Source: Gammaproteobacteria bacterium (GTDB lineage Bacteria > Pseudomonadota > Gammaproteobacteria > HyVt-429). Taken from it: DNA of 64,000 bases. The translations under genes were made by a program, and so were the position numbers. Shown here piece by piece: positions 1 through 14,767 of the stretch; positions within the stretch are counted from its first letter, which is position 1; every line of letters starts with the position of its first letter. The stretch is from the NCBI GenBank assembly GCA_013152415.1, contig JAADGI010000029.1:1-64000 (forward strand). Direction: 5' to 3'. A model generated the notes under the pieces. The model saw only the letters and a program-made list of their open reading frames with translations, was not told the origin of the DNA and did not search any database.

Positions 1-90
1 TGTATTTTAAATGATTGACTGAATCTTGTTCCCATTCTTAGGGCCCTCTAACTGATAAATTAGAGGCGACAACTATCCTGACACAGGGGG

Positions 91-1704
91 CTTAGTAAGT
101 CCCGCCGGTCCGCCTGTCACTATAAAAAGAGAACCTTCCGTCGCAACGGACTCTCGTCCCTCAGTAAGTCACGCCCCTATGGTGAAAAGTACCAACACTA
201 TTGGAGCGCTGTCGCAACGGACTCTCGTCCCTCAGTAAGTCACGCCCTTAAAAGGAGAAAGAAAATGCTGATGAAAAGAACGTCGCAACGGACTCTCGTC
301 CCTTAGTAAGTCCCGCCCCCGACTCCGTGACGAGTGGCAATTGGGGCGTGTCGCAACGGACTCTCGTCCCTTAGTAAGTCCCGCCTACAAAATGCCGCCA
401 TCAAAATGTTCAACCCTCGGTCGCAACGGACTCTCGTCCCTTAGTAAGTCCCGCCCATATCTTTGCCTCCATATGTGCCAGCTATTGCAGTCGCAACGGA
501 CTCTCGTCCCTTAGTAAGTCCCGCCTTCTTTTCGCAGTTCATTCGTGAAAGAGTAGTAGAGTCGCAACGGACTCTCGTCCCTTAGTAAGTCCCGCCCTAG
601 AAGAAGTGCTTCCCAGAAACTAGCGGACTTAGTCGCAACGGACTCTCGTCCCTTAGTAAGTCCCGCCTTTAGGAGGGCATATCATGAAGGTAATTAAAGG
701 GTCGCAACGGACTCTCGTCCCTTAGTAAGTCCCGCCAGAAGTTACGCAAAGGCCAGTATTTTTACTGCGGTCGCAACGGACTCTCGTCCCTTAGTAAGTC
801 CCGCCAACAATACTGTCCTCATACATTCCCCTATGTCCGTCGCAACGGACTCTCGTCCCTTAGTAAGTCCCGCCTCCTCGAGCATGACGTACCTGGCCTT
901 GGGCAGCAGTCGCAACGGACTCTCGTCCCTTAGTAAGTCCCGCCACAAATGAGAGTCTTCATTATCGTAATTGGTGGGTCGCAACGGACTCTCGTCCCTT
1001 AGTAAGTCCCGCCGCTCGTCGGTTTCGTAATCGCTCCTATTGTGAGTGTCGCAACGGACTCTCGTCCCTTAGTAAGTCCCGCCGGAACGTTCAAAGTACA
1101 TTTAGCACCATGAAGTAGGTCGCAACGGACTCTCGTCCCTTAGTAAGTCCCGCCTGCTCTAACTATCATTGCGTTTGGCGCGGAAGTCGCAACGGACTCT
1201 CGTCCCTTAGTAAGTCCCGCCGCAAAGGACGGGCAGTTGTTCTCGTCTCATGAGTCGCAACGGACTCTCGTCCCTTAGTAAGTCCCGCCAATAATCTATT
1301 GCAAGGAGTCCTTTGATGAAAGTCGCAACGGACTCTCGTCCCTTAGTAAGTCCCGCCAATATTATGTACTAGACAATATTCTTAGATAAAAGTCGCAACG
1401 GACTCTCGTCCCTTAGTAAGTCCCGCCATTGTTGCCGGCCCGAAGTGCGTGCCGCTTTGGTCGCAACGGACTCTCGTCCCTTAGTAAGTCCCGCCCCTGT
1501 AAAGCACTCAGAAAGATGTCTCTTGATGGTCGCAACGGACTCTCGTCCCTTAGTAAGTCCCGCCGAAACTATCGAAATCATTGATTTTCTACAGGAGAGT
1601 CGCAACGGACTCTCGTCCCTTAGTAAGTCCCGCCGATTCCTGAAAAGATAATCAAAATCGCTTTTAGTGTCGCAACGGACTCTCGTCCCTTAGTAAGTCC
1701 CGCC
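91..1704 (-). CRISPR. CRISPR array: 23 full 36-bp repeats (140-175 through 1669-1704), 22 spacers of 31-35 bp, plus a truncated 16-bp trailer repeat at 91-106
   Basis: Repeat on + strand: GTCGCAACGGACTCTCGTCCCTTAGTAAGTCCCGCC; starts at 140,211,282,350,420,490,561,632,701,770,839,909,978,1048,1119,1186,1254,1322,1392,1460,1529,1599,1669. Degenerate repeats at the left end place the leader on the right, so transcription is most likely on the - strand (crRNA repeat GGCGGGACTTACTAAGGGACGAGAGTCCGTTGCGAC). Confidence 0.98.
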
Positions 1705-1865: not shown

Positions 1866-2153
1866 TTACACCACGATGACCGCTGGATAGTCCATTATTT
1901 CTGACCCATCCAGGCTGAAGGACTCGCGCAGTGTGTTGCCGTTCATGCGATAGAAGCGGATGTTGGCGGGGTCCTCGTAGCGTCGGCACAGGCCATTTAA
2001 GCGCCCACGCAGTCGCCGCATCTGGGTGGTGTTGCGCATGGCCAGTTCAAAGACGGAGTGTTGTACGCGAAAACCATGCCTCATTAACTCCTTTACCACC
2101 CGGTAGCGCAGGCGGTCGTGATGGACATCGAAACAGGCCAAGTAGTATTGCAT
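1866..2153 (-). CDS. cas2: CRISPR-associated endoribonuclease Cas2
   Basis: 95 aa; MQYYLACFDVHHDRLRYRVVKELMRHGFRVQHSVFELAM pattern typical of Cas2; adjacent to cas1 fusion and array. Confidence 0.93.
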   Translation of the reverse strand: MQYYLACFDVHHDRLRYRVVKELMRHGFRVQHSVFELAMRNTTQMRRLRGRLNGLCRRYEDPANIRFYRMNGNTLRESFSLDGSEIMDYPAVIVV

Positions 2154-2156
2154 GGT

Positions 2157-5081
2157 TTATCTCTCCCTATAAGGCCGGAATGCACTTTCTTCCCGCAACC
2201 ATGCGATCAACGAACGATTCTGCCGGTGCAGGTGGCCGTGCAGGCCCCGTGGACGGTCGTCGCCCCAGGCTGTGACCCCGGCAACAAAGCGTTCTTGCAA
2301 CACGCGCAGGTAATCGCGCAAGGCGGTCCGTTCCATTTCGCAACGCCCACCGCGCATGGAGAAGTTGTCGGGGCTAATCATGCGCTTGCGGATGATGTGC
2401 AAGGCGGTGCGCTCTACCAAGTGGCGGAAAGGCTCCATCATGTCCGAGGCCAAGGCGGCATGACCGGCACGGCGCTGATGGTAAACGCCCAGGGCCGACA
2501 GCAGACCGTCTACGCGCAGAGCGGCATCGGTGTGGGCGTAGAGAATGCTGTAGCCAAGATCAAGCAGGACGTTGAATGGGTCGAGGGCGGGGTGCCGTTG
2601 ACGCCGTTTAAAGTTCCATTCAGACCCAAGAACGGTACGGATACCGGCGAAAAACTCACGGGTCGCCTCGCCCTCTACGCCGTTCAACTCGGCGATGTCG
2701 GCGACCTCCAGGGCCTTGTCCGCAGCCCGCTTGAGCCGGGGACGGGCGGCCTGGGCGTCTAATGGCAGGCGGCGCAACACCTCGCGAAGATTGCGGATGC
2801 GGGCGGCCACCAGTTCCCGGGCCGGTTCCAGTCCGTGGGCTGTCTCCAGCAAGCGGTCTAATTGTAAGCGCCACAGGGCCAACCGGCCTGCCTCGTGGGC
2901 GGCGGAGGTCGCCACACCAAGGTACTCACCCGAACGGCGGACGAAATGTACCGGCACGCCACGGCGCATGGCCCCGCGCAGTGCCGGGGTGGTGATATGC
3001 TGCGGCCCGACCAGAACCAGGGACTCGAGGGTGTCCACAGGACGGTCCAGAAGTATCTCGCCCTCCCGGGAGACCCGCAGATGACCCTCGCTGATAGCGA
3101 CTGTCGATGGCTTGCCGGTAACGGCCACCAGGGCGCCCACCTCCTCTACCCCAACCAGCGTGGGTGCTGCCGGTGTGTGCCCCACCAGGCGCTCTACAAG
3201 TTGCTCCACGCGTTCCGCCTTCTCCACCGGGTTGAGTGCCAAACGGGTCTCACAATTGTGCCTGTTTGGAAGGGGCTTGGCTGTGGTTGGCTGTGCCGGT
3301 GGATCATCCGTGACTTCGCCTTGTTTGAAGTACAGACCGAGATAACGAAAGCCCTGCTCAAAATCGGTCTCGGCAGTTTTGTCTTCGCGCAACATCAGCT
3401 TTAGCTCGGCCAGGGAACGGCGTACTTCGGCCTCGGCGTCTTCCAGGCGGGTCGCGTCTTTACAGAGCACGACAAAGTCGTCGGCATAGCGGATCATCTT
3501 GAAGTTTTCCGCCGCCAGGTCGCGGTCGAAATCGTCCAGGACAAGATTTGACAGCAGGGGGCTGAGCGGTGACCCCTGTGGCAACCCACGTAAACGGGTG
3601 AGTTCACGGCCCTCGGCGATCAGCGGGGCGCGCATCCAGGCAAGACAATGGTCCACGACCGGGTCATGCCGGTACAGGGCGCGCAGCCGCACTTCGATGT
3701 CGTGCCAATCGACACTGGTAAAAAAATCCTCAATGTCGGACTCGAAGACGTAACAATAGCCCGCCTCCCAGGCCCGGCGAATGGCCTCGGCGGCACTGTG
3801 GCGCGAGTGGCCCCGACGGTAGCCGTGGCTGTTGCGGTGAAAGTATTTGTTGAGCGCGGGGGCGAGCACCTGGACCACGGCACGTTGGGCAACGCGCTCG
3901 GCAAAGAGGGGCACCGCCAACATGCGCTGGCCACCGTTCTTTTTGGGCAGGGATCGCAGATGCAGCGAATCGACCTGGCTGTCTCCCGGCCGCAGCCGTG
4001 CCGTGAGGTCCTCTTTGTGCTTGTCCGTCAGCAGGCGTGGTTCCCGTTTGTTACGGGTGGCGGCGATGCGCCAAGCCTGCTCCAGATTATAGTCGAGGGC
4101 GGCCCGTTGCAGCAGCGAGGCAGCGGGTCTCAAGAGGGGCACGGCGTTGGCGGTCTCACCGTCGACCGTCTCCAACCGGTAGCGGCCCAGACCGAAGGCG
4201 GGTTGTTCACCCATGCCCAGGTGCTGGCCCAACACCAGGCAACCGATATGAAATGTGGACAGGTCAGGCAACGGTGGGAACTGCAGTTCTCCCAACAGAC
4301 CGCTCAGGTGCTTCCAACGGGCACCGCTCTTGTAGCTGTCCTCGACCCAAAAGACGCGGCATTCGCTAAAGTTACAAGCAGCGGCCTTTGGGGTCGGCTT
4401 GGGTTCCTCATGGCCATGGTGCTGGATCAACGCGCGCAGGGCCTCGACATTACGGTGCAACAAAAAATCTGCATCCAGGTCGCCGGGGTTACTGCAATAG
4501 CGGGGCTTGCCGTCGGTCGACTCCCGTTGCTCCCGTACCGCTGCGGGCAGCAACATGCGCAGGGGCGAGGTCCAGCGCCATACCAGTGGGTGTTCATGAA
4601 TATAGGCCTGCCACAGGTTCAGTTCGTGTTGGAAGCGCTCCCCGTCGTAGGAAATGAACCGTTCCGGATCGAAGTCGTCGCCCGTGGCCAGCCGATCACG
4701 AATAGACACCAGCCGCAGATTACCGCGAAAGGGATCATTGCGCCGTTTGTCCCGCTGGGCGGAGGCAGGTAAACCCTCCAGTTTTTGAATAAGCACCCGC
4801 AACAACGGCAGACCAGGCTCGAACGCGGTGATGCCGAACCGGTAACGCTCACCGGAACGGTAAAACACCCGCCCGTCCTCAGCGCTCTCCACCAACAACT
4901 TACCGGCATAACTCACCCCCCGGGCGTCAATCAGGGTACGGATAAAGCCCGTCAACTGCCCCCGGTGAAAAAACGGTAGACGGGTGGACTCGGTAAACTC
5001 AAGCGTGATCTCGAGGCAATAGAAGGGAAGGATTTTGGGGAGCCAGTCGGTCCGAAGTTTCGCGCTGTTGCCTGACATCAA
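2157..5081 (-). CDS. Cas6-reverse transcriptase-Cas1 fusion protein
   Basis: 974 aa. N-terminal RAMP/Cas6-like part ending in glycine-rich loop GMGEQPAFGLGRYRL (~4190-4230); group II intron-like RT with SDIEDFFTSVDW, GLPQGSPLSPLLSNL and YADD (3477-3488); C-terminal Cas1 (RPVDTLESLVLVGPQHITTPALRGAMRRGVPVHFV, NGVEGEATREFF, GVYHQRRAGHAALASDMMEPFR). Confidence 0.93.
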   Translation of the reverse strand: MMSGNSAKLRTDWLPKILPFYCLEITLEFTESTRLPFFHRGQLTGFIRTLIDARGVSYAGKLLVESAEDGRVFYRSGERYRFGITAFEPGLPLLRVLIQKLEGLPASAQRDKRRNDPFRGNLRLVSIRDRLATGDDFDPERFISYDGERFQHELNLWQAYIHEHPLVWRWTSPLRMLLPAAVREQRESTDGKPRYCSNPGDLDADFLLHRNVEALRALIQHHGHEEPKPTPKAAACNFSECRVFWVEDSYKSGARWKHLSGLLGELQFPPLPDLSTFHIGCLVLGQHLGMGEQPAFGLGRYRLETVDGETANAVPLLRPAASLLQRAALDYNLEQAWRIAATRNKREPRLLTDKHKEDLTARLRPGDSQVDSLHLRSLPKKNGGQRMLAVPLFAERVAQRAVVQVLAPALNKYFHRNSHGYRRGHSRHSAAEAIRRAWEAGYCYVFESDIEDFFTSVDWHDIEVRLRALYRHDPVVDHCLAWMRAPLIAEGRELTRLRGLPQGSPLSPLLSNLVLDDFDRDLAAENFKMIRYADDFVVLCKDATRLEDAEAEVRRSLAELKLMLREDKTAETDFEQGFRYLGLYFKQGEVTDDPPAQPTTAKPLPNRHNCETRLALNPVEKAERVEQLVERLVGHTPAAPTLVGVEEVGALVAVTGKPSTVAISEGHLRVSREGEILLDRPVDTLESLVLVGPQHITTPALRGAMRRGVPVHFVRRSGEYLGVATSAAHEAGRLALWRLQLDRLLETAHGLEPARELVAARIRNLREVLRRLPLDAQAARPRLKRAADKALEVADIAELNGVEGEATREFFAGIRTVLGSEWNFKRRQRHPALDPFNVLLDLGYSILYAHTDAALRVDGLLSALGVYHQRRAGHAALASDMMEPFRHLVERTALHIIRKRMISPDNFSMRGGRCEMERTALRDYLRVLQERFVAGVTAWGDDRPRGLHGHLHRQNRSLIAWLREESAFRPYRER

Positions 5082-8000
5082 TCGGGAGAATCGATTTCTG
5101 AGATAGGCTGTATCAGGGTAATTCTCTTTTTGACTTCAATGTAGAGAACTTCAATGTTTAGCGTAGCGTCCTTATCTCTCACAAACTCTTTCGCTTTGCC
5201 TGTTAATTCTTTCTCTTTTCCACCGATCTTCCATTTTTCCTCTGTAGAATCAAATGAAAGCCATCCGATGTTAGCGCCCCCTCTGCCTTGATGGAATGAG
5301 AAATAAGAAGGAACACAACCATCCGAATACAATTTCTCCGGGTTAGGCAGTTTATTATTAACCACATGCCAAGCGAAGAGCTCACGTTCAGACCAGGCAC
5401 GTATTAGAGGATCGTTACTGTACAAGGCATAACGCTGTGCCTTTGTCAGCGGATAGGTAATTAACTCATTTTCATCTCGTTGTTTCCCGATCTCTTGCAA
5501 GCATCGCAGTGTGCCGGGATCAACCAGTCTGCCGAGGTCATTGGGGTCTGATATAAAATCGCTGATAGATTTATCTTCCATGGCGACACCGTTTTCCTGT
5601 GTAAAACAGTCCTTTATATTTCGCTCTTTGATGCACTTTACCTCGACCCTCACAGACCCTAAGCCCAGGGGCTTGCCCAAGCCCAGTTTGTGCAGAAACT
5701 CACCTCCCGGCGCGATAGCGGTCAGCAGCAGCTTCATTTCATGATCGTTCAGGTTGTAGTAATGGATAGCAAACGTGAACGCCTGATTTCTTACAATTGG
5801 TTGGCATTTGGTTTTCTGTCCCTTGTTGTTCCCGATATCCAACGTTGCATAGCTATTCGGACTGACATCGTCCGGGCATTGACGCAGGTATTCCTTGCGG
5901 CCATTGGGAACAAGATGGCTACCTTCCTTGTGAAAATAAAGGTATTCCGATGGTGGTTCTGGCGAGGATAGAATCTTGATCGTCACTTGTTCTCTGCGCT
6001 CTGGATCATTGTTATTATCAATGAATTTCGCATCGGTAAAACGCAGACGGGAAGCAAGGTTCCTTTGCTTGCCTGGGGCGTTACTCGTATCTTCTTCCAC
6101 CACGCCCAGCAGCACCTCCGCTGGCGTCAGCCAATCCACACCACGTTTGATGCTGCCCCAAGGCAACAAGGCTTTACTTACGAAATTAAACGCGTCATGG
6201 GATGTTAAATAGTAAAAGGGTTTTCGCCAGATGGATGAGGGGCTAATTTCCGAGACTATAGCGTTGTCCGTTTTGTAGAAAATAGTTTTGCCCACCAGTT
6301 TTTCCATTGCAGGTTTTTCTATTATGCCTGGTGTTTTCAGGATATTTTCATATGTGGCAATGACATCAGGCGGCACATCGAGATCATTTGCTTCTCCTTC
6401 TGCCTGGATTTGCCATTGCTCCCCGTTTTTTATGAGCACCCCCTTACGCGTTAATCGTTCATTTTGAGATTTTCGTACACTGAAATAACGATTCTCCAAC
6501 ACCCGCAAACTGGACTGGCTCAGCGTTTCGATGACATTACCGATCATGCCCCGCAGGCTGTTGGCGGGGAAGGCGACGTAACCTGCGTGGCGGTAGGCAT
6601 GAACCGTGGTTTCTTTCTCCTTATCCGGTTGTTCATGCTCATTGCCCACCAGGGTGTCGGTGACGGTTGTCAATGTGCAAGCAATTATTCCGGTATGCCG
6701 TTCCGGGATATAGAGATCGTGGCGAATTCCTTTTTCTTTGATGTCATCATACGCCGGGCAATTACCGTCATTCCATAGTGCCTTGACCGGCACGAAGGCG
6801 TAGGGGTTCAGTTGTTTGCCATTGGCCCGATTGATCGTGGGTGTTCCATCCTCCACGACCGAAGGAATTTTATGTTCCGGCTCGCCACCGCAATCATCTG
6901 CTGTGGTCTTCTTTGTGGCTTCCTGTTTACTATTTTTGTAGTCTTCATCGATTGTCTGCTTGAGTGCCTCAACCCACTCAGAAGGATTATTGGCCACTTC
7001 TGGCCCGAATCCATTTGAGATTACAGTGGCGAGATCGATCTTTTTGCCCTTCTCGTCCTTTTCGACAAGTTTTAACAAACCATAGCCCTTGGCCTTACCC
7101 CAACCGACCCAGAAATGGCCATCGGTGATCTCGCGCAGGGCAAGGTAGAGCAGGCCACACTGCCAATCCTCCCATTTATCCTTTTTGTGGAGAATCAGGC
7201 CGCCACCCTCAAGCTTGCTCCCCGGTGGGATGGCGCATGCACAATAGAGCGCCCCGTCCTTCACACCCCCGGTAAAACGGTCGATGGCAATGAAGAACTG
7301 CGTGTGGACATCGTCACCCTTATAGACGGGGGCCTTCCATTGGACCCGGCTTGCCTGGTTTGTGTCACCAAAAATCTTGCTAACCAACGGGTTGGCCTCT
7401 TCGACCGCCTTGTTGGGATCGTCGATTCGATTGTTGATCAGAGTGGCGGCAATGCGGGTAGCGATGTCACGCAAGGCGCCGGTGAGGCTTTCCGGCGGCA
7501 AAGTCGCCTTCTGGTCTGCATTTCGGTAACACACCAAATCGGGTAGACCCTGATCCTCTTTCTCATGGTTTCCCTTCCGTTTCTTTGGTGCCTGGCCCGG
7601 ATCGTGGACGAGGACGGGCTGCTGGGTGATGAGTGTTAATGGAACGTCCAGCAACTGTTTTTCAATAGAAGCAATACTTACATCAACAGAGTCACCGAAT
7701 AACACGTCGATATCTCTCTTATCATTATCCTTCACAAACCAGTTATGGATTGCGTCGGTGGAGATGCTCCGGTAACTGCATTTCTCAACCTCGAGCACAC
7801 CCCAGGACTTGGTCTTTTTCGCACCCAGGCCGTGGGTCAGATCGCCATCCCAACGTTTCAGAGCCTCAATAAGACCGTCGATTTCGCTCTCATCCACCCA
7901 GTCCATTTCCAGTTCGGCGGTAAAGCGCGCACCCTGCGGATAGACCTCGTGATAAAATAGGCCCTTCCCGTCCTGGGTACCCGTCTCTGGTCTGATTTTG

Positions 8001-8443
8001 ATACCGCTGCGCAGCCCCGTCATGCGATCCGGATGCCAATAACTGACTAGCGTGGGGTCGCAACCATCATAACGCGCATCCATGACCCGGACGCAGCCTC
8101 CCCGGTGTTCTCCGGAGCCGATATCGTCCGGGCCAAAAAGTTCTTTTCGGCAATCGTTATTGCGCGTCAATCCTCGGCGCAGGAATCCACGCAAGGTGCT
8201 GCCAGGCAGGACGAGCCGCTCCGACGGTCGTGTGTAACAGCATTGGTATGTGCCATTTTCTTTCAGATTTTCTTTGCTCGCAATATCTCTTTCCGATCCA
8301 TAAATTTTGCAACGTTCCGCTTCGATCTTGACCGCCTCACGCCCGTCGCCGACATGAACATCGGTCTTACAAACGAGTTCGACAATGAACTGCACACGAT
8401 AATATCGTCTCTCGTGCTTTTCGCTGGTTCTGGTCTCGGGCAT
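5078..8443 (-). CDS. Type III RAMP fusion protein with apparently three Cas7/Csm3-like units (C-terminal unit resembling the TIGR03986 RAMP family)
   Basis: ~1121 aa from the ATG at 8443 (ORF track extends to 8500). Three RAMP-like signatures: GSTLRGFLRRGLTR...GLGAKKTKSWG; PESLTGALRD...FIAIDRFTGGVKDGALY...WGKAKGYGLLKL; PANSLRGMIGNVIE...LGLGKPLGLGSVRVEV. ATGA overlap with the Cas6-RT-Cas1 gene. Confidence 0.85.
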   Translation of the reverse strand: MPETRTSEKHERRYYRVQFIVELVCKTDVHVGDGREAVKIEAERCKIYGSERDIASKENLKENGTYQCCYTRPSERLVLPGSTLRGFLRRGLTRNNDCRKELFGPDDIGSGEHRGGCVRVMDARYDGCDPTLVSYWHPDRMTGLRSGIKIRPETGTQDGKGLFYHEVYPQGARFTAELEMDWVDESEIDGLIEALKRWDGDLTHGLGAKKTKSWGVLEVEKCSYRSISTDAIHNWFVKDNDKRDIDVLFGDSVDVSIASIEKQLLDVPLTLITQQPVLVHDPGQAPKKRKGNHEKEDQGLPDLVCYRNADQKATLPPESLTGALRDIATRIAATLINNRIDDPNKAVEEANPLVSKIFGDTNQASRVQWKAPVYKGDDVHTQFFIAIDRFTGGVKDGALYCACAIPPGSKLEGGGLILHKKDKWEDWQCGLLYLALREITDGHFWVGWGKAKGYGLLKLVEKDEKGKKIDLATVISNGFGPEVANNPSEWVEALKQTIDEDYKNSKQEATKKTTADDCGGEPEHKIPSVVEDGTPTINRANGKQLNPYAFVPVKALWNDGNCPAYDDIKEKGIRHDLYIPERHTGIIACTLTTVTDTLVGNEHEQPDKEKETTVHAYRHAGYVAFPANSLRGMIGNVIETLSQSSLRVLENRYFSVRKSQNERLTRKGVLIKNGEQWQIQAEGEANDLDVPPDVIATYENILKTPGIIEKPAMEKLVGKTIFYKTDNAIVSEISPSSIWRKPFYYLTSHDAFNFVSKALLPWGSIKRGVDWLTPAEVLLGVVEEDTSNAPGKQRNLASRLRFTDAKFIDNNNDPERREQVTIKILSSPEPPSEYLYFHKEGSHLVPNGRKEYLRQCPDDVSPNSYATLDIGNNKGQKTKCQPIVRNQAFTFAIHYYNLNDHEMKLLLTAIAPGGEFLHKLGLGKPLGLGSVRVEVKCIKERNIKDCFTQENGVAMEDKSISDFISDPNDLGRLVDPGTLRCLQEIGKQRDENELITYPLTKAQRYALYSNDPLIRAWSERELFAWHVVNNKLPNPEKLYSDGCVPSYFSFHQGRGGANIGWLSFDSTEEKWKIGGKEKELTGKAKEFVRDKDATLNIEVLYIEVKKRITLIQPISEIDSPD

Positions 8444-8447
8444 CCTG

Positions 8448-10301
8448 TTACTCCTCAATCGGTGGTTGCCAGCTTTCATGTAGCTCGAGATTGACGGCAA
8501 TCTCGCCCCAACCGTTCTCCCTGATCCAGGGATTCAGTTCCCAGGGTTTGGGTCTCGAATCTTCATCTTCCATACCAGAGGCATCCGTTACCTCTGAATC
8601 TTTATCTTTCATGCCGGGGGCACCCATGACTTGAGGCAGACCGAGACGCTGCCATTCCCTGATCTTCTCTTCGGCCTTTTCTCTGTCTTTGATATCGAAA
8701 ACAAACACGCTGCCGGCATCGGTAAATACCTGTGTCTGGTAGAGTGGTTTTGAGCATTTACCGTAACGTTTCCACCAATAGTCGCCGCCCATGAGTGTCT
8801 GCCGGGCGTAGTAATGACTGAGCCTGAGGCTTTCATTAGATAGTTCATCCCAGATGCATCGGTAGCATTTTAATAGCTCACCCCCACCACCCGTTTGCGG
8901 GATATCCTGGATATCCTCCACATTAAACAAACGGGCCGGGGTTTGCAGCGCGATCACTATTTGATTTTTCTCGATGGGACGTTCCTGAACCGCAAAATCG
9001 AATCCACCCGATACGATCTCGACAATAGCGGGTGTTTTGGTCTTGCCCAATGGCAGGAACGACTGGCCTTTTGCAATCTCAGCAAGAATCTTGAGAAATT
9101 CTCTGACATCGGAATCAGTCACGCCGTTGCCGTATTTGGGGAAATCGATATTGCACAGCCAGACCTGCTCGGGGTCCGGCTTGACCATCTCGACCGCGAA
9201 CAGACCTTTGTCCTCCGCTGCACGTTTATTCAGATCGTGTTTATTACGCACGACCAACATACGCTCGATCTCACCCGGCCAACCGAGTTCACTACGGGCG
9301 CTGTTGAGATGCCTTTGCTTCCAGTCAGGCTGGAAGGCGGGTGCCACCTGTTTGATCAGCCCAGGCTCCTCCATATATGCAACATCACGCAGGTCACCAC
9401 CGGCGAATACCAACGACAGGGGAGGCACCACTGGGCGACAGGTGGCCTGGTGGTTTACAGACAAGGCATGAGTGACCCGCACAGCGTCGAAAAGAGGTTT
9501 GATTTGTTGCCATTGGGATTGTTTTTTCGCAACACGGGCAATCACCGCCTTAATCGCCGCACCCGGGATCGAATCGCTGGAAACGAGGGCATTACTCTTC
9601 TTCGGCCCGTGAAGGGCAAAACAAAATGGCCATAGGGGCCGCAAGCGCAACCCTACCCGGCCAGTTTGAATAATGTGCGCGATGGTCTCTTTGTCCAATT
9701 CACGACTGGCGCTGGTAAGCACTGCAGGTGCGGCGGTATCAGTGATGTTCACTTCATGCATCCTGCCCAATCCAACCCCCTTTTCCCCACCCAGTGCCGG
9801 TGTCATGAGCAGTCCCTTACGAATCCATTCCTTCAATTCTTTATCGGGCTTGTCATCCAACAACAGTATGTGTCCGGAAAAGATTAACGGCTTTTCCGGG
9901 GCATTATCACCACTGCCGCGCTCCTTGTTGTCCAACACCTTTGCAACCTGCAGCATCTTGCTTCCCACCGACCGGGTCCCGTCGTCAATTTTGATGCGGA
10001 TGCGCTCATCCGGTACCGTCTCCCCGTCGAGCGTCCAGAAGGGCTCGAAGATCAGACAACCGCGCTGATCGAGAGTATCGTCACTCTCTCCCAGCCACTT
10101 TTTGATATCGACTGTGGCCCCCAGCTTGTTCAGGAGCATCCAATTCTCTTTGAGATTGCCCCGTATCAAGCTTCCCGGCAGCGCGTAGCGTCCCTGAGGG
10201 TCACGGAACATATCGGCATCAACACCAAACGGAAGCGCGCCACTCTGCCGACTGATCACCGGCGGCAGGATCGATAACGTTACGCGGTACCACATGCTCA
10301 T
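8448..10301 (-). CDS. Type III RAMP protein; N-terminal Cas7-like unit plus a possible Cas5/Csx10-like second half
   Basis: 617 aa. N-term YALPGSLIRGNLKENW...GGEKGVGLGRMHEV typical RAMP; second half VGLRLRPLWPF...SDSIPGAAIKAVIARV...LPLGKTKTPA suggests another RAMP fold. 4-bp overlap with cas10. Confidence 0.75.
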   Translation of the reverse strand: MSMWYRVTLSILPPVISRQSGALPFGVDADMFRDPQGRYALPGSLIRGNLKENWMLLNKLGATVDIKKWLGESDDTLDQRGCLIFEPFWTLDGETVPDERIRIKIDDGTRSVGSKMLQVAKVLDNKERGSGDNAPEKPLIFSGHILLLDDKPDKELKEWIRKGLLMTPALGGEKGVGLGRMHEVNITDTAAPAVLTSASRELDKETIAHIIQTGRVGLRLRPLWPFCFALHGPKKSNALVSSDSIPGAAIKAVIARVAKKQSQWQQIKPLFDAVRVTHALSVNHQATCRPVVPPLSLVFAGGDLRDVAYMEEPGLIKQVAPAFQPDWKQRHLNSARSELGWPGEIERMLVVRNKHDLNKRAAEDKGLFAVEMVKPDPEQVWLCNIDFPKYGNGVTDSDVREFLKILAEIAKGQSFLPLGKTKTPAIVEIVSGGFDFAVQERPIEKNQIVIALQTPARLFNVEDIQDIPQTGGGGELLKCYRCIWDELSNESLRLSHYYARQTLMGGDYWWKRYGKCSKPLYQTQVFTDAGSVFVFDIKDREKAEEKIREWQRLGLPQVMGAPGMKDKDSEVTDASGMEDEDSRPKPWELNPWIRENGWGEIAVNLELHESWQPPIEE

Positions 10302-11947
10302 GGTTTTCCCCTTTTAAGGGGATTCTGGAGGTACTCCCAATATTCCAACGCAAACAACCATGGCTGTAATGCACGAATAGCACCGTAATACTCTTCGTGC
10401 TCCTGCTGCACCGAACTGGACAAGGCCGAGTCCTGAAGAGATGCTTTGTCGATTAGCGGAAAAATATCGCTTACAATCTTTCCAATATCTTCAATCTTTT
10501 CAATCTCTCTGGAATCCCCAACCTCTTCCATACACGTCATTTTTGGCACCTTGGTGGCGGTTCTTTCATAGCTGTTGTAAAACTTCACCACGTCCCGCCG
10601 AAATGCACCATGGATGTTGATCCCGGCAATCTTTTCTGAAAAACTGTCGAGCTTATACATATCCTTGTTATCCTTGTCATCCTCCATATTTTCTGCATAT
10701 AGCGGTTTGAACGGCAAGATATGGGCGCCGCATTTTTCGTAACGGCGTTTCCAGTGGCGGCTGATACGTTCGGTAGGGTAGTCCTCCGATTCGAGCAGAA
10801 GCGGGAAATAGAGATCAACGTTGCGCGAAAACATCTTGGCGTGTTCGGCCAGCTCCCGGGCCAACCTGGAAACCCGTTGAATCGGAGTATTGTGGGAACA
10901 GAAGACAAGCCCACCCGCGTGGGTGAGGGAGACACCGTTGATTTCCAACCCTTCCATTTCTTGGTAGAAAAGATGCAGTGTCGCAAACCCCGCCCACGCA
11001 GGAACAACCAATAGAATCTCATCACCTCCCCAAAGCAGCACTTCCAGCCGTAATGCTTCACCATTTTTCATGGTCTCCTTTGACTTAAAACTATTCACTA
11101 ACGCCTTAAGAAGGCCGGTACGTTTCTCTCTCAGTTTATTGTCAAACTCCATGACTTTATTCAGGCTGAGTTCAGCCTGGTGCTTGTTGAAATGGTTTCC
11201 GTCGAAGTAGAGCACCGCGATCTTGTCCTTGCAGGCGGCCACCTCCGGCGACTCTTTTAAACTCCATTCGCTCAGATCTTTCAAATCTTTTGTGAATTTG
11301 TTTACATCCGGGGGGCAACCCATTTCCCGATTGATAAAACTATTTTTTTGATCGGCACCGTATTGATAACGAGCATGGACCGATCTAGATAGACATTCTT
11401 CTTTTTTATCTATTTTTTTCTTGCTCGACGCTGGGCGGCACCCTTCTAGGAAGCAGGCAGGAGTCTTTTCCGGGGAATCGTCATGTGCCGCCTCAAGATC
11501 ACCAAAATATATCGACGGTATACGCATTTGCTGCAATCGGTTCTTGGCAAGAAGCACCCGACGAGAAACTACCTCGGCTGTCGACGGTTCCATTTCCACC
11601 GCCGAAACAACAAAACCAATTTGTGGCAGCACTTTTCCCAGATTTTCACCCAACGCTGACTTGCCGGAACCATTTAGATGGCCCCGTAGCGTCCCCTCCA
11701 GTTCGGTTTTATTATTCTCATTCGCACGAAATCGGAACAAACCCGTCGAACCACCACTTCGGATCTCCTCAACCTCAGAAATACCTTTAGTGGATTTGAT
11801 CACTTTGTTGACCGCATGCACCGCCTCACGCATGGCAATGCTACCTCCACGGCGTACACTTAGCTGGCCGGTATCTTCAATCACCGAATCAATATTTACG
11901 GCCTCGACTTGTAGCAACCAAGCTGGTTCTGGAATCGTCAAGCACAT
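10298..11947 (-). CDS. cas10: Cas10-like large subunit, compact, no recognisable HD domain, palm motif GGDE
   Basis: 549 aa; KIAVLYFDGNHFNKHQ and LLWGGDEILLVVPAW (GGDE at 11018-11029), cysteine motif CFLEGCRPA and SRSVHARYQYG typical of Cas10 palm/zinc region; flanked by RAMP genes. Confidence 0.85.
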   Translation of the reverse strand: MCLTIPEPAWLLQVEAVNIDSVIEDTGQLSVRRGGSIAMREAVHAVNKVIKSTKGISEVEEIRSGGSTGLFRFRANENNKTELEGTLRGHLNGSGKSALGENLGKVLPQIGFVVSAVEMEPSTAEVVSRRVLLAKNRLQQMRIPSIYFGDLEAAHDDSPEKTPACFLEGCRPASSKKKIDKKEECLSRSVHARYQYGADQKNSFINREMGCPPDVNKFTKDLKDLSEWSLKESPEVAACKDKIAVLYFDGNHFNKHQAELSLNKVMEFDNKLREKRTGLLKALVNSFKSKETMKNGEALRLEVLLWGGDEILLVVPAWAGFATLHLFYQEMEGLEINGVSLTHAGGLVFCSHNTPIQRVSRLARELAEHAKMFSRNVDLYFPLLLESEDYPTERISRHWKRRYEKCGAHILPFKPLYAENMEDDKDNKDMYKLDSFSEKIAGINIHGAFRRDVVKFYNSYERTATKVPKMTCMEEVGDSREIEKIEDIGKIVSDIFPLIDKASLQDSALSSSVQQEHEEYYGAIRALQPWLFALEYWEYLQNPLKRGKP

Positions 11948-11950
11948 GGT

Positions 11951-14767
11951 TCAATCCTCATATCGTTTGTCCAGGCCGGTACAACGTTCAGGCAGGAACA
12001 GTTTCTTAAATAGAATCAAGCCAGCCAGGCTCACTATGACAAACAGTAACGTGGTTATCCCGATCAGCAATTTGCTATCAAAACCGACTAACCCGAGGAC
12101 GACGAAACAAACAAGAATTATGACTTGATACAGGGTCAGGAACAAAAGGTAGTGCAGCTTGATATTCCCCAGCCCAGGCATTCGCATAAGGTAGTGAAGC
12201 TTGGCATTCCCCAGCCCAAGCATTCGTATAAAGAGAAATATTACCGTAGTTGTCAGCAGCATTGAGAAAACAAACTGGACCATGAACGCCAGTGCGTTGG
12301 TAATGGGCTCCAGTGAACACACTGCCGGTTTGAACCAAGACAGCACATCCCGCAAAACCAGAAATGCTTGCTTGGTGAGGGATATGAGGTAGGCCGCAAC
12401 CGGCATACCGATAATCTCTTTTATCGCATCCACGCTCAGCAGACCAACAAAAACTGCGGCAAATGTAATGACCAAACCTACACAGGTCAGGCGATCCCGC
12501 ACTTTGCACTTTTCATAGTCTTCTGTCTTTTCGATCTCCTCCTTGACGATGTTATGCGACTCTTTAAACCCCATCGCCCGGCTCTGGAGCTCATAAATTT
12601 CCTTACCTTGCTGCTGCTCGGTGACCTCATGGAACCAATAGCGATTGGTAAATTCCATGAATTCGTCACGCAACTTACCAAGGATGTCATGTTTAGTTTT
12701 GCCTTCACGCGACCCACCCAACTCCTGCTTTGGGGTTTTCGACCCTTCTTTGTCAGTGGAAGAGGGGGTGGCTTCGCTGATCTTGAATTCATATCCGCTG
12801 AATAGTGATTGGTAAAACAGATTCAACACCGTCATCCGACCATAAATGTGTGGGACATGGATCGGGGCAATCCGCTCGCGCGCCTCCCTGGAGAGCCCCA
12901 TGTAAACATGCGAATGATCGGTGAAACCGTGTAAGCTTCCGAGCTCCTCCCAACGCCGATAAACCTGGTACTTTTGTTGCTCCTGGCAAAATTGCCGACT
13001 GTAGGCAAACTCTCCCGGACTCGTATCCTTTTGTCGATCAACATGCAAGGCGATATGGTGTATACGATTGAACTCCTGTTTTGCCCATTGATTCGATGGA
13101 ACAGGCCCTGCCAATGCATAGGCAACATTGACAAACATCCTGTCATTGCGGGATTCATCCATCAATCGTTCTCTTGCTCGATCAATGTCCTCTGAGTCCT
13201 GATAAAATTTCGAAAGCAGGTGCGTGATGACGGAATTGAAATCCTCGATCTTAAATGACGTCGCGGGTGGATCACTTGAAAGGTCCTTAATCTGCATATC
13301 GCAGATTTTTTTCTCCTTCCACTGCTCGAGAAAGCTGGGATAGAGGATGCGCACCATTTGTGTAAAGTTGAGCCATCTTTCCAACTGCACACATTCTGGA
13401 TTTTGTTTACGTTCAAATAAATCGTGCCACCAGTTGGTCTGATCCGCACATTTGGGATCATCCCAGGAATTGTTTACCGATACGGGCATTTCAATCCGGA
13501 ATGCCAGGAGATCATGTTTTAAATGGTGACGATACAAGGAAACATCTTTAACCTCGGCACCATCAAATGGTGGTTTGCATTGGGTATCAGCATCACACTG
13601 GATGAGCTTTAGTGTGATATTATCTAATGATTCATGGGGTAACGAATATTCCTCTATGGATTTGATACCGCTTTCGGGACTCTCACCCATATGAAAAATC
13701 TGTTCCCGCAGCCGTGGTGAGAAATAGCGCACAACCTGGGCCTTGATCGCATCATCCTTGTATTCTTCATAGGGCCGAATGCCTTCCGGCTCCAATTTTG
13801 GGAACGCATATTTTCCGATTGGCGTATTCTTGTACTCTTTCGCAACACCTTTAGTGCCTGGCGCAATACCTTTGATTTCTGGGCGTTTATCACCGACATA
13901 CCCTAGCGAACAATAGAAGGTGGCGGAATAATAGCGCAGGGGACGGCCGGACCAGAGTACGGTAGCAAGCATATCGCTCACCAAATCATTGACACTCCCA
14001 GGGTCGTAGCTTAAGAAGTTGATCTCAAATTCCAACGTATACCGCCCCAGCCTAAAAAACATCAGGCACCGTGAGCGCCAATACTCGGATACAAATAACG
14101 TCGAAAAATAATCTACAAAACGTGGCGCACCGATAAACGTAACGCGCTTTACTTTGTTCAGATCATCCACATCATTGCTGCCTACAAAACCAAGCAGTAA
14201 GGCTTGTTTCAGACGGGGTAACTCTCCCCTGGCAAGACACTCTGTATAACCATCCCAACCATCACGGTTGGGACGCAGGGTGAGTAGTTTCTTCTCTTCC
14301 CACTCGCCAAGTGTCAATTTGGTCAGCTTCAGGTCGTCCAGATCGACGTACGGGACCTTCTCAATGGAACCAAATTGTTTGCAAAAAAACTCCTCGGATT
14401 TCTCCCAGTCCTGTCCCCGTTCAGCAAGCCCCAGCCAATAGTCGCGCTCAAAGGCAGCCAGGGTCTGCTGCTCTTCGGATAAGGTCTTGCCCAACGCGAC
14501 GGCTGCACGCTCCAGTAGTCCTGCGCCCTGCTTTCGCAGATAACGGCGAAGGTGGCATTTTGGGTGATCGATGTTGGATAAGACGCCGGGGAGAAGAGTT
14601 TCACCGGCTATCTCAAATTTAGGTGTGTCTGCTTCCAGAAATGTGGCGCGGGGTGGTTCACCTGTATCGAGGAATTTAATTGATTCACGGATCGCCTCGT
14701 ACAACCGGCTTCCCTTGTTCTTCTGTTGTTCTGATTCTCCCCCCATCCCTATGCTCCTGTCCATCAC
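11951..14767 (-). CDS. Large CRISPR-associated membrane protein; soluble N-terminal ~700 aa plus about four C-terminal transmembrane segments (possible divergent CorA-like effector)
   Basis: 938 aa; hydrophobic stretches LTCVGLVITFAAVFVGLLSV, ALAFMVQFVFSMLLTTTVIFLFI, LLFLTLYQVIILVCFVVLGLVGF, LLIGITTLLFVIVSLAGLILF preceded by charged coiled-coil RYWFHEVTEQQQGKEIYELQ; first gene of the cas operon, 3 bp from cas10. Confidence 0.7.
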   Translation of the reverse strand: MMDRSIGMGGESEQQKNKGSRLYEAIRESIKFLDTGEPPRATFLEADTPKFEIAGETLLPGVLSNIDHPKCHLRRYLRKQGAGLLERAAVALGKTLSEEQQTLAAFERDYWLGLAERGQDWEKSEEFFCKQFGSIEKVPYVDLDDLKLTKLTLGEWEEKKLLTLRPNRDGWDGYTECLARGELPRLKQALLLGFVGSNDVDDLNKVKRVTFIGAPRFVDYFSTLFVSEYWRSRCLMFFRLGRYTLEFEINFLSYDPGSVNDLVSDMLATVLWSGRPLRYYSATFYCSLGYVGDKRPEIKGIAPGTKGVAKEYKNTPIGKYAFPKLEPEGIRPYEEYKDDAIKAQVVRYFSPRLREQIFHMGESPESGIKSIEEYSLPHESLDNITLKLIQCDADTQCKPPFDGAEVKDVSLYRHHLKHDLLAFRIEMPVSVNNSWDDPKCADQTNWWHDLFERKQNPECVQLERWLNFTQMVRILYPSFLEQWKEKKICDMQIKDLSSDPPATSFKIEDFNSVITHLLSKFYQDSEDIDRARERLMDESRNDRMFVNVAYALAGPVPSNQWAKQEFNRIHHIALHVDRQKDTSPGEFAYSRQFCQEQQKYQVYRRWEELGSLHGFTDHSHVYMGLSREARERIAPIHVPHIYGRMTVLNLFYQSLFSGYEFKISEATPSSTDKEGSKTPKQELGGSREGKTKHDILGKLRDEFMEFTNRYWFHEVTEQQQGKEIYELQSRAMGFKESHNIVKEEIEKTEDYEKCKVRDRLTCVGLVITFAAVFVGLLSVDAIKEIIGMPVAAYLISLTKQAFLVLRDVLSWFKPAVCSLEPITNALAFMVQFVFSMLLTTTVIFLFIRMLGLGNAKLHYLMRMPGLGNIKLHYLLFLTLYQVIILVCFVVLGLVGFDSKLLIGITTLLFVIVSLAGLILFKKLFLPERCTGLDKRYED
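12149..12232. repeat. 42-bp imperfect tandem duplication inside the 938-aa membrane protein gene
   Basis: gtagtgcagcttgatattccccagcccaggcattcgcataag / gtagtgaagcttggcattccccagcccaagcattcgtataaa. Confidence 0.9.

What the first reader, a model, noticed from the sequence alone, without database searches (positions are those of the whole stretch)
2157..5081. Cas6-RT-Cas1 triple fusion
Seen: one 974-aa ORF has a Cas6-like glycine loop (GMGEQPAFGLGRYRL), an RT palm with YADD, and a Cas1 with the conserved E/H/D/E-region motifs. Known: RT-Cas1 of Marinomonas mediterranea acquires spacers from RNA, and Cas6-RT-Cas1 fusions are known in a few gammaproteobacteria (e.g. Thiomicrospira). All RT motifs look intact, so RNA spacer acquisition is plausible.
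Basis: partly seen in the sequence, partly recalled or inferred. Interest (0 to 1): 0.75.

Follow-up and report, generated by a model that had tools for sequence, protein, structure and literature searches.

The report
Cas6-RT-Cas1 CRISPR adaptation protein, type III
This is an apparently intact member of a known family of bacterial immune proteins that can probably write RNA into CRISPR memory, sitting in a complete CRISPR operon whose target-sensing complex is built from unusually fused proteins and is coupled to a membrane-channel protein; it is real and well preserved, but of a kind already described.

Summary
Window 2157-5081(-) is one uninterrupted Cas6-RT-Cas1 ORF. It aligns end to end with the solved Thiomicrospira Cas6-RT-Cas1 (PDB 7KFT/7KFU, E 7.7e-125, 32% identity), and a confident AlphaFold2 model finds the same structure first. 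Four of the five residues tested by mutation there are kept (Cas6 R48, RT D534, RT-helix K568, Cas1 H868); the fifth, R835, is H830 here and varies in relatives. The gene lies in a complete operon: CorA-like membrane protein, Cas10 (GGDE), a 617-aa RAMP protein, an 1140-aa fused multi-Cas7 protein, Cas6-RT-Cas1, Cas2, array. Five relatives carry the same effector set, and PDB 9WXH holds homologues of its three core proteins. Repeats keep a covarying hairpin 8 nt from the 3' end, fitting Cas6 processing. Spacers pooled over related arrays favour crRNAs antisense to coding strands (106/156; type I-F control in the same genome 20/48), which is usual for type III and does not prove RNA origin. No protospacer was found. 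Cas6-RT-Cas1 fusions are established (clades 8 and 11), so this is a new member of a known kind. The least explained part is the CorA/type III-D signal, an open question in the literature.

The parts
2157..5081 (-). cas6-RT-cas1 fusion, 974 aa (or 973 from the ATG at 5078)
   Evidence: full-length phmmer match to 7KFT; Pfam RVT_1 and Cas_Cas1; AF2 model best matched by 7KFU_C
4155..5033 (-). Cas6 domain, about residues 17-309: H39, R48, glycine loop 289-299
   Evidence: alignments to 7KFT residues 9-307 and to MMB-1 Cas6 6DD5
3312..4008 (-). RT domain, about residues 359-590: motif A D449, PQG 501-503, YADD 532-535, RT-helix K568
   Evidence: Pfam RVT_1, residue mapping
2160..3122 (-). Cas1 domain, residues 654-974: E803, H868, D880, E883
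   Evidence: Pfam Cas_Cas1, own-genome search C2:2295-3122, residue mapping
1866..2153 (-). cas2, 95 aa
   Evidence: Pfam CRISPR_Cas2 1.9e-13
5078..8500 (-). 1140-aa fused multi-Cas7 (RAMP) protein; TIGR03986-type C-terminal half
   Evidence: Pfam RAMPs 2.2e-37, NCBIfam TIGR03986 4.5e-64; 9WXH chain D 6.7e-55; split into two genes in L021, L022, L036, L053
8448..10301 (-). 617-aa RAMP protein (Csm4/Cas5-type, III-D)
   Evidence: PADLOC Csm4 1.3e-34; 9WXH chain C 9.6e-42
10298..11947 (-). cas10, 549 aa, GGDE cyclase motif (G307-E310), no HD domain match
   Evidence: PADLOC Cas10 5.1e-24; 9WXH chain B 1.3e-36; GGDE and DGN invariant in six homologues
11951..14767 (-). CorA-like CRISPR-associated membrane protein, 938 aa, with about 330 residues before the family match
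   Evidence: PADLOC CorA 6.6e-69, residues 334-819; at the head of the operon in L020, L021, L022, L036, L053
140..1704 (-). CRISPR array, 23 complete repeats of 36 nt, 31-35 nt spacers; crRNA strand is minus, oldest end at the left
   Evidence: degenerate repeats at 140-246 and the position of cas2 place the leader on the right
91..106 (-). 16 nt of a further repeat, cut by a mobile-element end; the other 20 nt are at the end of contig C16
1705..1865 (-). presumed leader between cas2 and the array
   Evidence: position only

Best explanation
A functional Cas6-RT-Cas1/Cas2 adaptation and crRNA-processing module of a type III-D-like CRISPR system. Inferred mechanism: the Cas6 domain cuts the pre-crRNA 8 nt from the 3' end of each repeat below a short hairpin. 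Cas1-Cas2 integrates prespacers beside the leader at 1705-1865. The RT domain lets RNA as well as DNA prespacers be copied and kept. The Cas10/multi-Cas7 complex recognises transcripts complementary to the crRNA, and Cas10 then makes a nucleotide signal that opens the CorA-like channel. Shown here: gene identity, intact catalytic residues, operon conservation, a repeat hairpin with compensatory changes, and, in the pooled set, spacer orientation consistent with mRNA targeting. Inferred from characterised relatives: the enzyme activities, RNA capture and the signalling step.
For: End-to-end homology to a biochemically characterised Cas6-RT-Cas1 (PMC8102632). Cas6 R48 (R37 there), RT D534 (D540), K568 (K574) and Cas1 H868 (H873) conserved; catalytic positions invariant in ten homologues except R48K and K568Q in one divergent row. 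Good AF2 model with 7KFU as top match. Cas2 and array directly downstream. The same effector set in L020, L021, L022, L036 and L053; window, L020, L021, L028 and L032 form one supported clade (SH-aLRT 99). Repeat hairpin ending 8 nt before the 3' end with both-sided changes in three of four pairs across eight repeats. Pooled spacers: target strand called coding in 106 of 156 (p 9e-6), against 20 of 48 for the type I-F array of the same genome (Fisher p 0.002).
Against: No protospacer in phages, plasmids, own genome, or for exact cores of seven spacers in IMG/VR; the single 22-nt match fails in its flanks. The window's own 25 spacers alone show no significant strand call (14 of 25). The residue whose mutation cut RNA ligation by more than 99% in the Thiomicrospira enzyme (R835) is H830 here, though R and Q also alternate among relatives. 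MMB-1 acquires spacers in either orientation (PMC5576922), so orientation is not a test of RNA origin.
Confidence: 0.85

Rival explanations
1. The protein is an active integrase and crRNA processor, but its RT no longer captures RNA; spacers come from DNA and the sense bias comes from selection for transcript-targeting crRNAs.
For: Type III arrays in general show about 65% coding-strand targeting, attributable to selection or acquisition (PMC8482600); the 68% here is the same size. R835 is replaced by H830. The Thiomicrospira complex fully integrates only dsDNA in vitro (PMC8102632).
Against: All RT catalytic motifs and the RT-helix lysine are kept. A decayed relative (L053/L061) shows what loss looks like: the ORF ends before YADD and no Cas1 follows.
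Confidence: 0.2
2. The module is silent or adaptation-inactive in this host: a relic with an intact ORF.
For: A mobile element interrupts the old end of the array, and no spacer could be traced to a target.
Against: The insertion is at the leader-distal end. Leader-proximal repeats are identical while only distal ones diverge, the usual picture of an array that grew at the leader. Catalytic residues are conserved across homologues of 27-56% identity.
Confidence: 0.1
3. Chance or mis-assembled joining of three genes.
For: None beyond the draft nature of the genome (36 contigs).
Against: The same three-domain order in ten full-length homologues from different genomes and in a solved protein.
Confidence: 0.005

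Closest known systems
Thiomicrospira Cas6-RT-Cas1/Cas2 (PDB 7KFT, 7KFU; PMC8102632)
   Same: Domain order, length (984 against 974), catalytic residues, RT-helix lysine, cas2 and type III context.
   Different: 32% identity over the aligned part; YADD instead of FADD; Cas1 R835 is H830.
Marinomonas mediterranea MMB-1 Cas6-RT-Cas1 (6DD5; RNA spacer acquisition shown in the literature)
   Same: Cas6 domain homologous over residues 7-308; same fusion.
   Different: MMB-1 has a type III-B Cmr effector (PMC5576922); here a III-D-like set of large or fused proteins plus CorA.
PDB 9WXH/9WXI/9WXJ, Cas10 plus two RAMP proteins (no paper found in the library)
   Same: All three window effector proteins match chains B, C and D; chain D is a 1235-aa single-chain multi-Cas7 protein like the 1140-aa one here.
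   Different: Host, function and any RT or CorA association of that complex are unknown to me.
CorA-associated type III-D loci (PMC12669027, PMC11229360)
   Same: Cas10 without a detected HD domain, III-D-type RAMP proteins, CorA-like gene, no SAM-AMP-degrading enzyme matched in the operon.
   Different: CorA here has about 330 residues before the family match; which signal it senses is unknown for III-D.

Membership tests
Cas6-RT-Cas1 fusion proteins | Cas6, RT and Cas1 domains in that order in one ORF | tested here: met
Cas6-RT-Cas1 fusion proteins | RT catalytic motifs (motif A Asp, PQG, xADD) | tested here: met
   D449, 501-503, D534, D535 invariant in ten homologues
Cas6-RT-Cas1 fusion proteins | Cas1 integrase residues | tested here: met
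   E803, H868, D880, E883 invariant; H868 equals H873 of Thiomicrospira
Cas6-RT-Cas1 fusion proteins | Cas6 active-site Arg and glycine-rich loop | tested here: met
   R48 equals R37; loop 289-299 invariant
Cas6-RT-Cas1 fusion proteins | adjacent cas2 and CRISPR array | tested here: met
Cas6-RT-Cas1 fusion proteins | placement in RT-CRISPR clade 8 of Toro et al. | not tested
   tree built only with relatives found here; no clade reference sequences on hand
RNA-acquiring RT-Cas1 systems | RT-dependent spacer acquisition from RNA | not testable with these tools
   needs an acquisition assay; spacer orientation is compatible but not diagnostic
Type III-D-like effector with CorA | Cas10 with an active-type palm motif and III-D-type RAMP proteins | tested here: met
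   GGDE invariant; PADLOC III-D RAMP matches
Type III-D-like effector with CorA | Cas7 catalytic aspartates for target RNA cleavage | tested here: inconclusive
   candidate Asp positions in the second Cas7 unit are not invariant across six homologues
Subtype III-E (Cas7-11e) | single effector without Cas10; model cut-off 700 bits | tested here: not met
   134.5 bits, and Cas10 is present
Subtype III-I (Cas7-11i) | model cut-off 800 bits and Cas10 without cyclase | tested here: not met
   41.7 bits; GGDE present
SAM-AMP signalling of the CorA-1 kind | NrN, DEDD or SAM-lyase partner beside corA | tested here: not met
   no such match among the operon proteins in Pfam, PADLOC or NCBIfam

The most novel reading that the evidence does not exclude
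The operon is a nearly consolidated type III-D effector (three proteins, with the Cas7 units fused into one chain) in which Cas6-RT-Cas1 supplies RNA-derived spacers and Cas10 makes a signal other than SAM-AMP, or SAM-AMP without a dedicated degrading enzyme, for a CorA channel with a new N-terminal sensor or regulatory region.
Probability: 0.25. Interest if true: 0.6.

Novelty: new member of a known kind. Interest (0 to 1): 0.32.

Why it matters
It adds a complete, apparently intact Cas6-RT-Cas1 locus with array and effector from an uncultured gammaproteobacterial lineage, with five relatives for comparison. The effector side joins two open questions in one operon: what CorA senses in type III-D systems (left open in PMC12669027), and how multi-protein type III complexes fuse towards single-chain effectors. 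The Cas7 units are separate genes in four relatives and one gene here and in Sedimenticola L020.

Tried and rejected
Protospacer search with 25 spacers in phages, plasmids and own genome, and exact 20-22-nt cores of seven spacers in IMG/VR. One 22-nt hit was rejected because only 23 of 32 positions agree in a 64% GC contig.

Three of the window's spacers span a Shine-Dalgarno plus ATG on the target strand, which first looked like a mark of mRNA 5' ends. Pooled, there are 5 in 156 against 0 on the other strand. A T7-like gene density alone predicts 2.7, so I do not claim enrichment.

AlphaFold2 of the CorA protein gave pLDDT 39 and was not used. A profile of CorA found nothing in the PDB. IMG/VR gave no relative of the fusion. 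The purine rule alone (104 against 41) was replaced by a calibrated codon model, because purine content identifies the coding strand only 54-65% of the time.

Full report
Observation. The ORF at 2157-5081 on the minus strand is present, uninterrupted and 974 aa long. The first codon is TTG, overlapping the stop of the upstream gene, and the next codon is ATG, so 973 aa is equally possible. Pfam recognises RVT_1 and Cas1. The Cas6 part has no Pfam match but aligns with the Cas6 regions of two solved fusions. phmmer against the PDB gives a single alignment to the Thiomicrospira Cas6-RT-Cas1 over query 17-962, E 7.7e-125, with 32% identity over 878 aligned positions. An AlphaFold2 model built from ten homologues is confident (pLDDT 82; only residues 1-9 and the 596-649 linker form segments below 50), and its best PDB match is 7KFU chain C. 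The TM-score over the whole chain is low (0.41), which I read as different domain placement, because the Cas1 domain alone superposes at TM 0.88 on 7KFT_D.

Active sites. PMC8102632 reports mutants of the Thiomicrospira protein. After correcting for three extra residues in the deposited construct (inferred from the positions of R37 and the FADD motif), R37 (Cas6) is R48 here, D540 (RT) is D534, K574 (RT-helix) is K568, H873 (Cas1) is H868, and R835 is H830. In an alignment of the window protein with nine homologues 27-56% identical to it, the catalytic positions do not vary, except R48K and K568Q in the long-branched L031. Position 830 is R in seven, Q in two and H only in the window. R835A cut ssRNA ligation by more than 99% and DNA ligation by 55-65%, so H830 is the one reason to doubt full RNA capture. 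Because Q also occurs naturally, I give it little weight.

Operon. Reading along the minus strand: CorA-like (11951-14767), Cas10 (10298-11947), a 617-aa RAMP protein (8448-10301), an 1140-aa fused RAMP protein (5078-8500), Cas6-RT-Cas1, Cas2 (1866-2153), then the array. The gaps are a few bases or overlaps. The three core effector proteins match chains B, C and D of PDB 9WXH/9WXI/9WXJ; no paper on that entry was found in the library. The 1140-aa protein scores far below the III-E and III-I model cut-offs (134.5 against 700 and 41.7 against 800 bits), and Cas10 with an invariant GGDE is present. So it is not III-E or III-I; it is best described as III-D-like. GGDE is among the cyclase-motif variants seen in loci with known effectors (PMC11229360).

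Relatives. One scan of 85,462 species genomes returned 18 clear relatives of the fusion, all Pseudomonadota and most of them Gammaproteobacteria. The CorA-Cas10-RAMP-RAMP set precedes the fusion in L020 (Sedimenticola), L021, L022 and L036. It also precedes a truncated Cas6-RT in L053, where the ORF stops before YADD and no Cas1 is found in the 6.6 kb searched beyond: there the Cas6 part seems to have been kept after adaptation was lost. The 1140-aa protein is one gene in the window and in L020 (1216 aa) but two genes in L021, L022, L036 and L053. On the tree, window, L020, L021, L028 and L032 form one clade (99); L022 and L036 fall elsewhere, so the label needs at least two changes and effector and adaptation modules have probably been exchanged. 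In a sample of 369 genomes of the class only five, the window's own included, matched the fusion.

Array and processing. The window starts at the end of a contig. The array has 23 whole repeats, with the two distal copies diverged and the leader side uniform. Contig C16 ends with three more repeats and the first 20 nt of a fourth; window 91-106 is exactly the missing 16 nt. Both flanking stretches occur elsewhere in the genome, eight and four copies in all, so mobile-element sequence has split the old end of the array. In crRNA orientation the repeat ends GGAC-GAGA-GUCC-GUUGCGAC. Seven relatives keep a four-pair stem ending 8 nt from the 3' end, and three of the four pairs change on both sides among the eight. 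The alignment was placed by hand on that stem, and the individual folds are not more stable than shuffles, so this is supportive rather than conclusive. Repeats of L020, L021 and L033 do not show the full stem.

Spacers. No target was found, as reported for RT-linked arrays of Arthrospira (PMC5513706). A codon model calibrated on host, T7 and T4 genes (62-81% correct per 34-mer) calls the strand complementary to the crRNA as coding for 106 of 156 spacers pooled over the window and its relatives, p 9e-6. The 48 spacers of the type I-F array in the same genome give 20 of 48. The pooled test treats spacers as independent, and the window alone is not significant (14 of 25). The size of the bias equals that reported for type III in general (65%, PMC8482600), where selection suffices. 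It therefore supports transcript targeting, not RNA origin.

Signal. The literature states that it is unclear what CorA senses in III-D loci, which lack known SAM-AMP-degrading enzymes (PMC12669027). This operon is another such case: no NrN, DEDD or lyase was matched. The CorA protein carries about 330 residues before the family match, weakly alignable with L021, whereas the CorA of L053 has only 609 residues in all. Its structure could not be modelled.

Judgement. The fusion family, its enzymes and RNA acquisition in relatives are established knowledge (PMC8102632, PMC5541045, PMC5576922). The interest here is that of a well-preserved new member with an instructive effector.

Noticed in passing
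window 1-106 and L014 (contig C16) 8648-8971: The CRISPR array is split inside a repeat at a contig break; both flanks are multi-copy sequences, and the two repeat halves (20 + 16 nt) add up to exactly one 36-nt repeat.
   Followed up: partly
L015 (contig C8) and G000:C8:63021-65922: The same genome has a type I-F system (cas1, cas2-3, csy1, csy2 by reading of the ORFs) with a 49-repeat array; phage-antirepressor-like (Bro-N) genes seem to sit among its cas genes.
   Followed up: partly
L053 591-2078 and L061: A relative keeps the CorA/Cas10/RAMP operon but its Cas6-RT ORF ends before YADD and no Cas1 follows in the stretch searched: Cas6 apparently kept after loss of adaptation.
   Followed up: partly
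window 11951-14767: The CorA-like protein is far longer (938 aa) than the 609-aa one of L053, with an unassigned N-terminal region; a 42-nt tandem duplication at 12143-12226 lies in its membrane-spanning end.
   Followed up: partly
window 247-281, 668-700, 1290-1321: Three spacers span a Shine-Dalgarno plus ATG on the strand complementary to the crRNA; suggestive but not beyond what gene-dense phage DNA would give when pooled.
   Followed up: yes
window 140-1704 compared with G000:C8:63021-65922: Spacers of the RT-linked array are AT-richer (58%) than those of the type I-F array of the same genome (51% GC, 49% AT).
   Followed up: no
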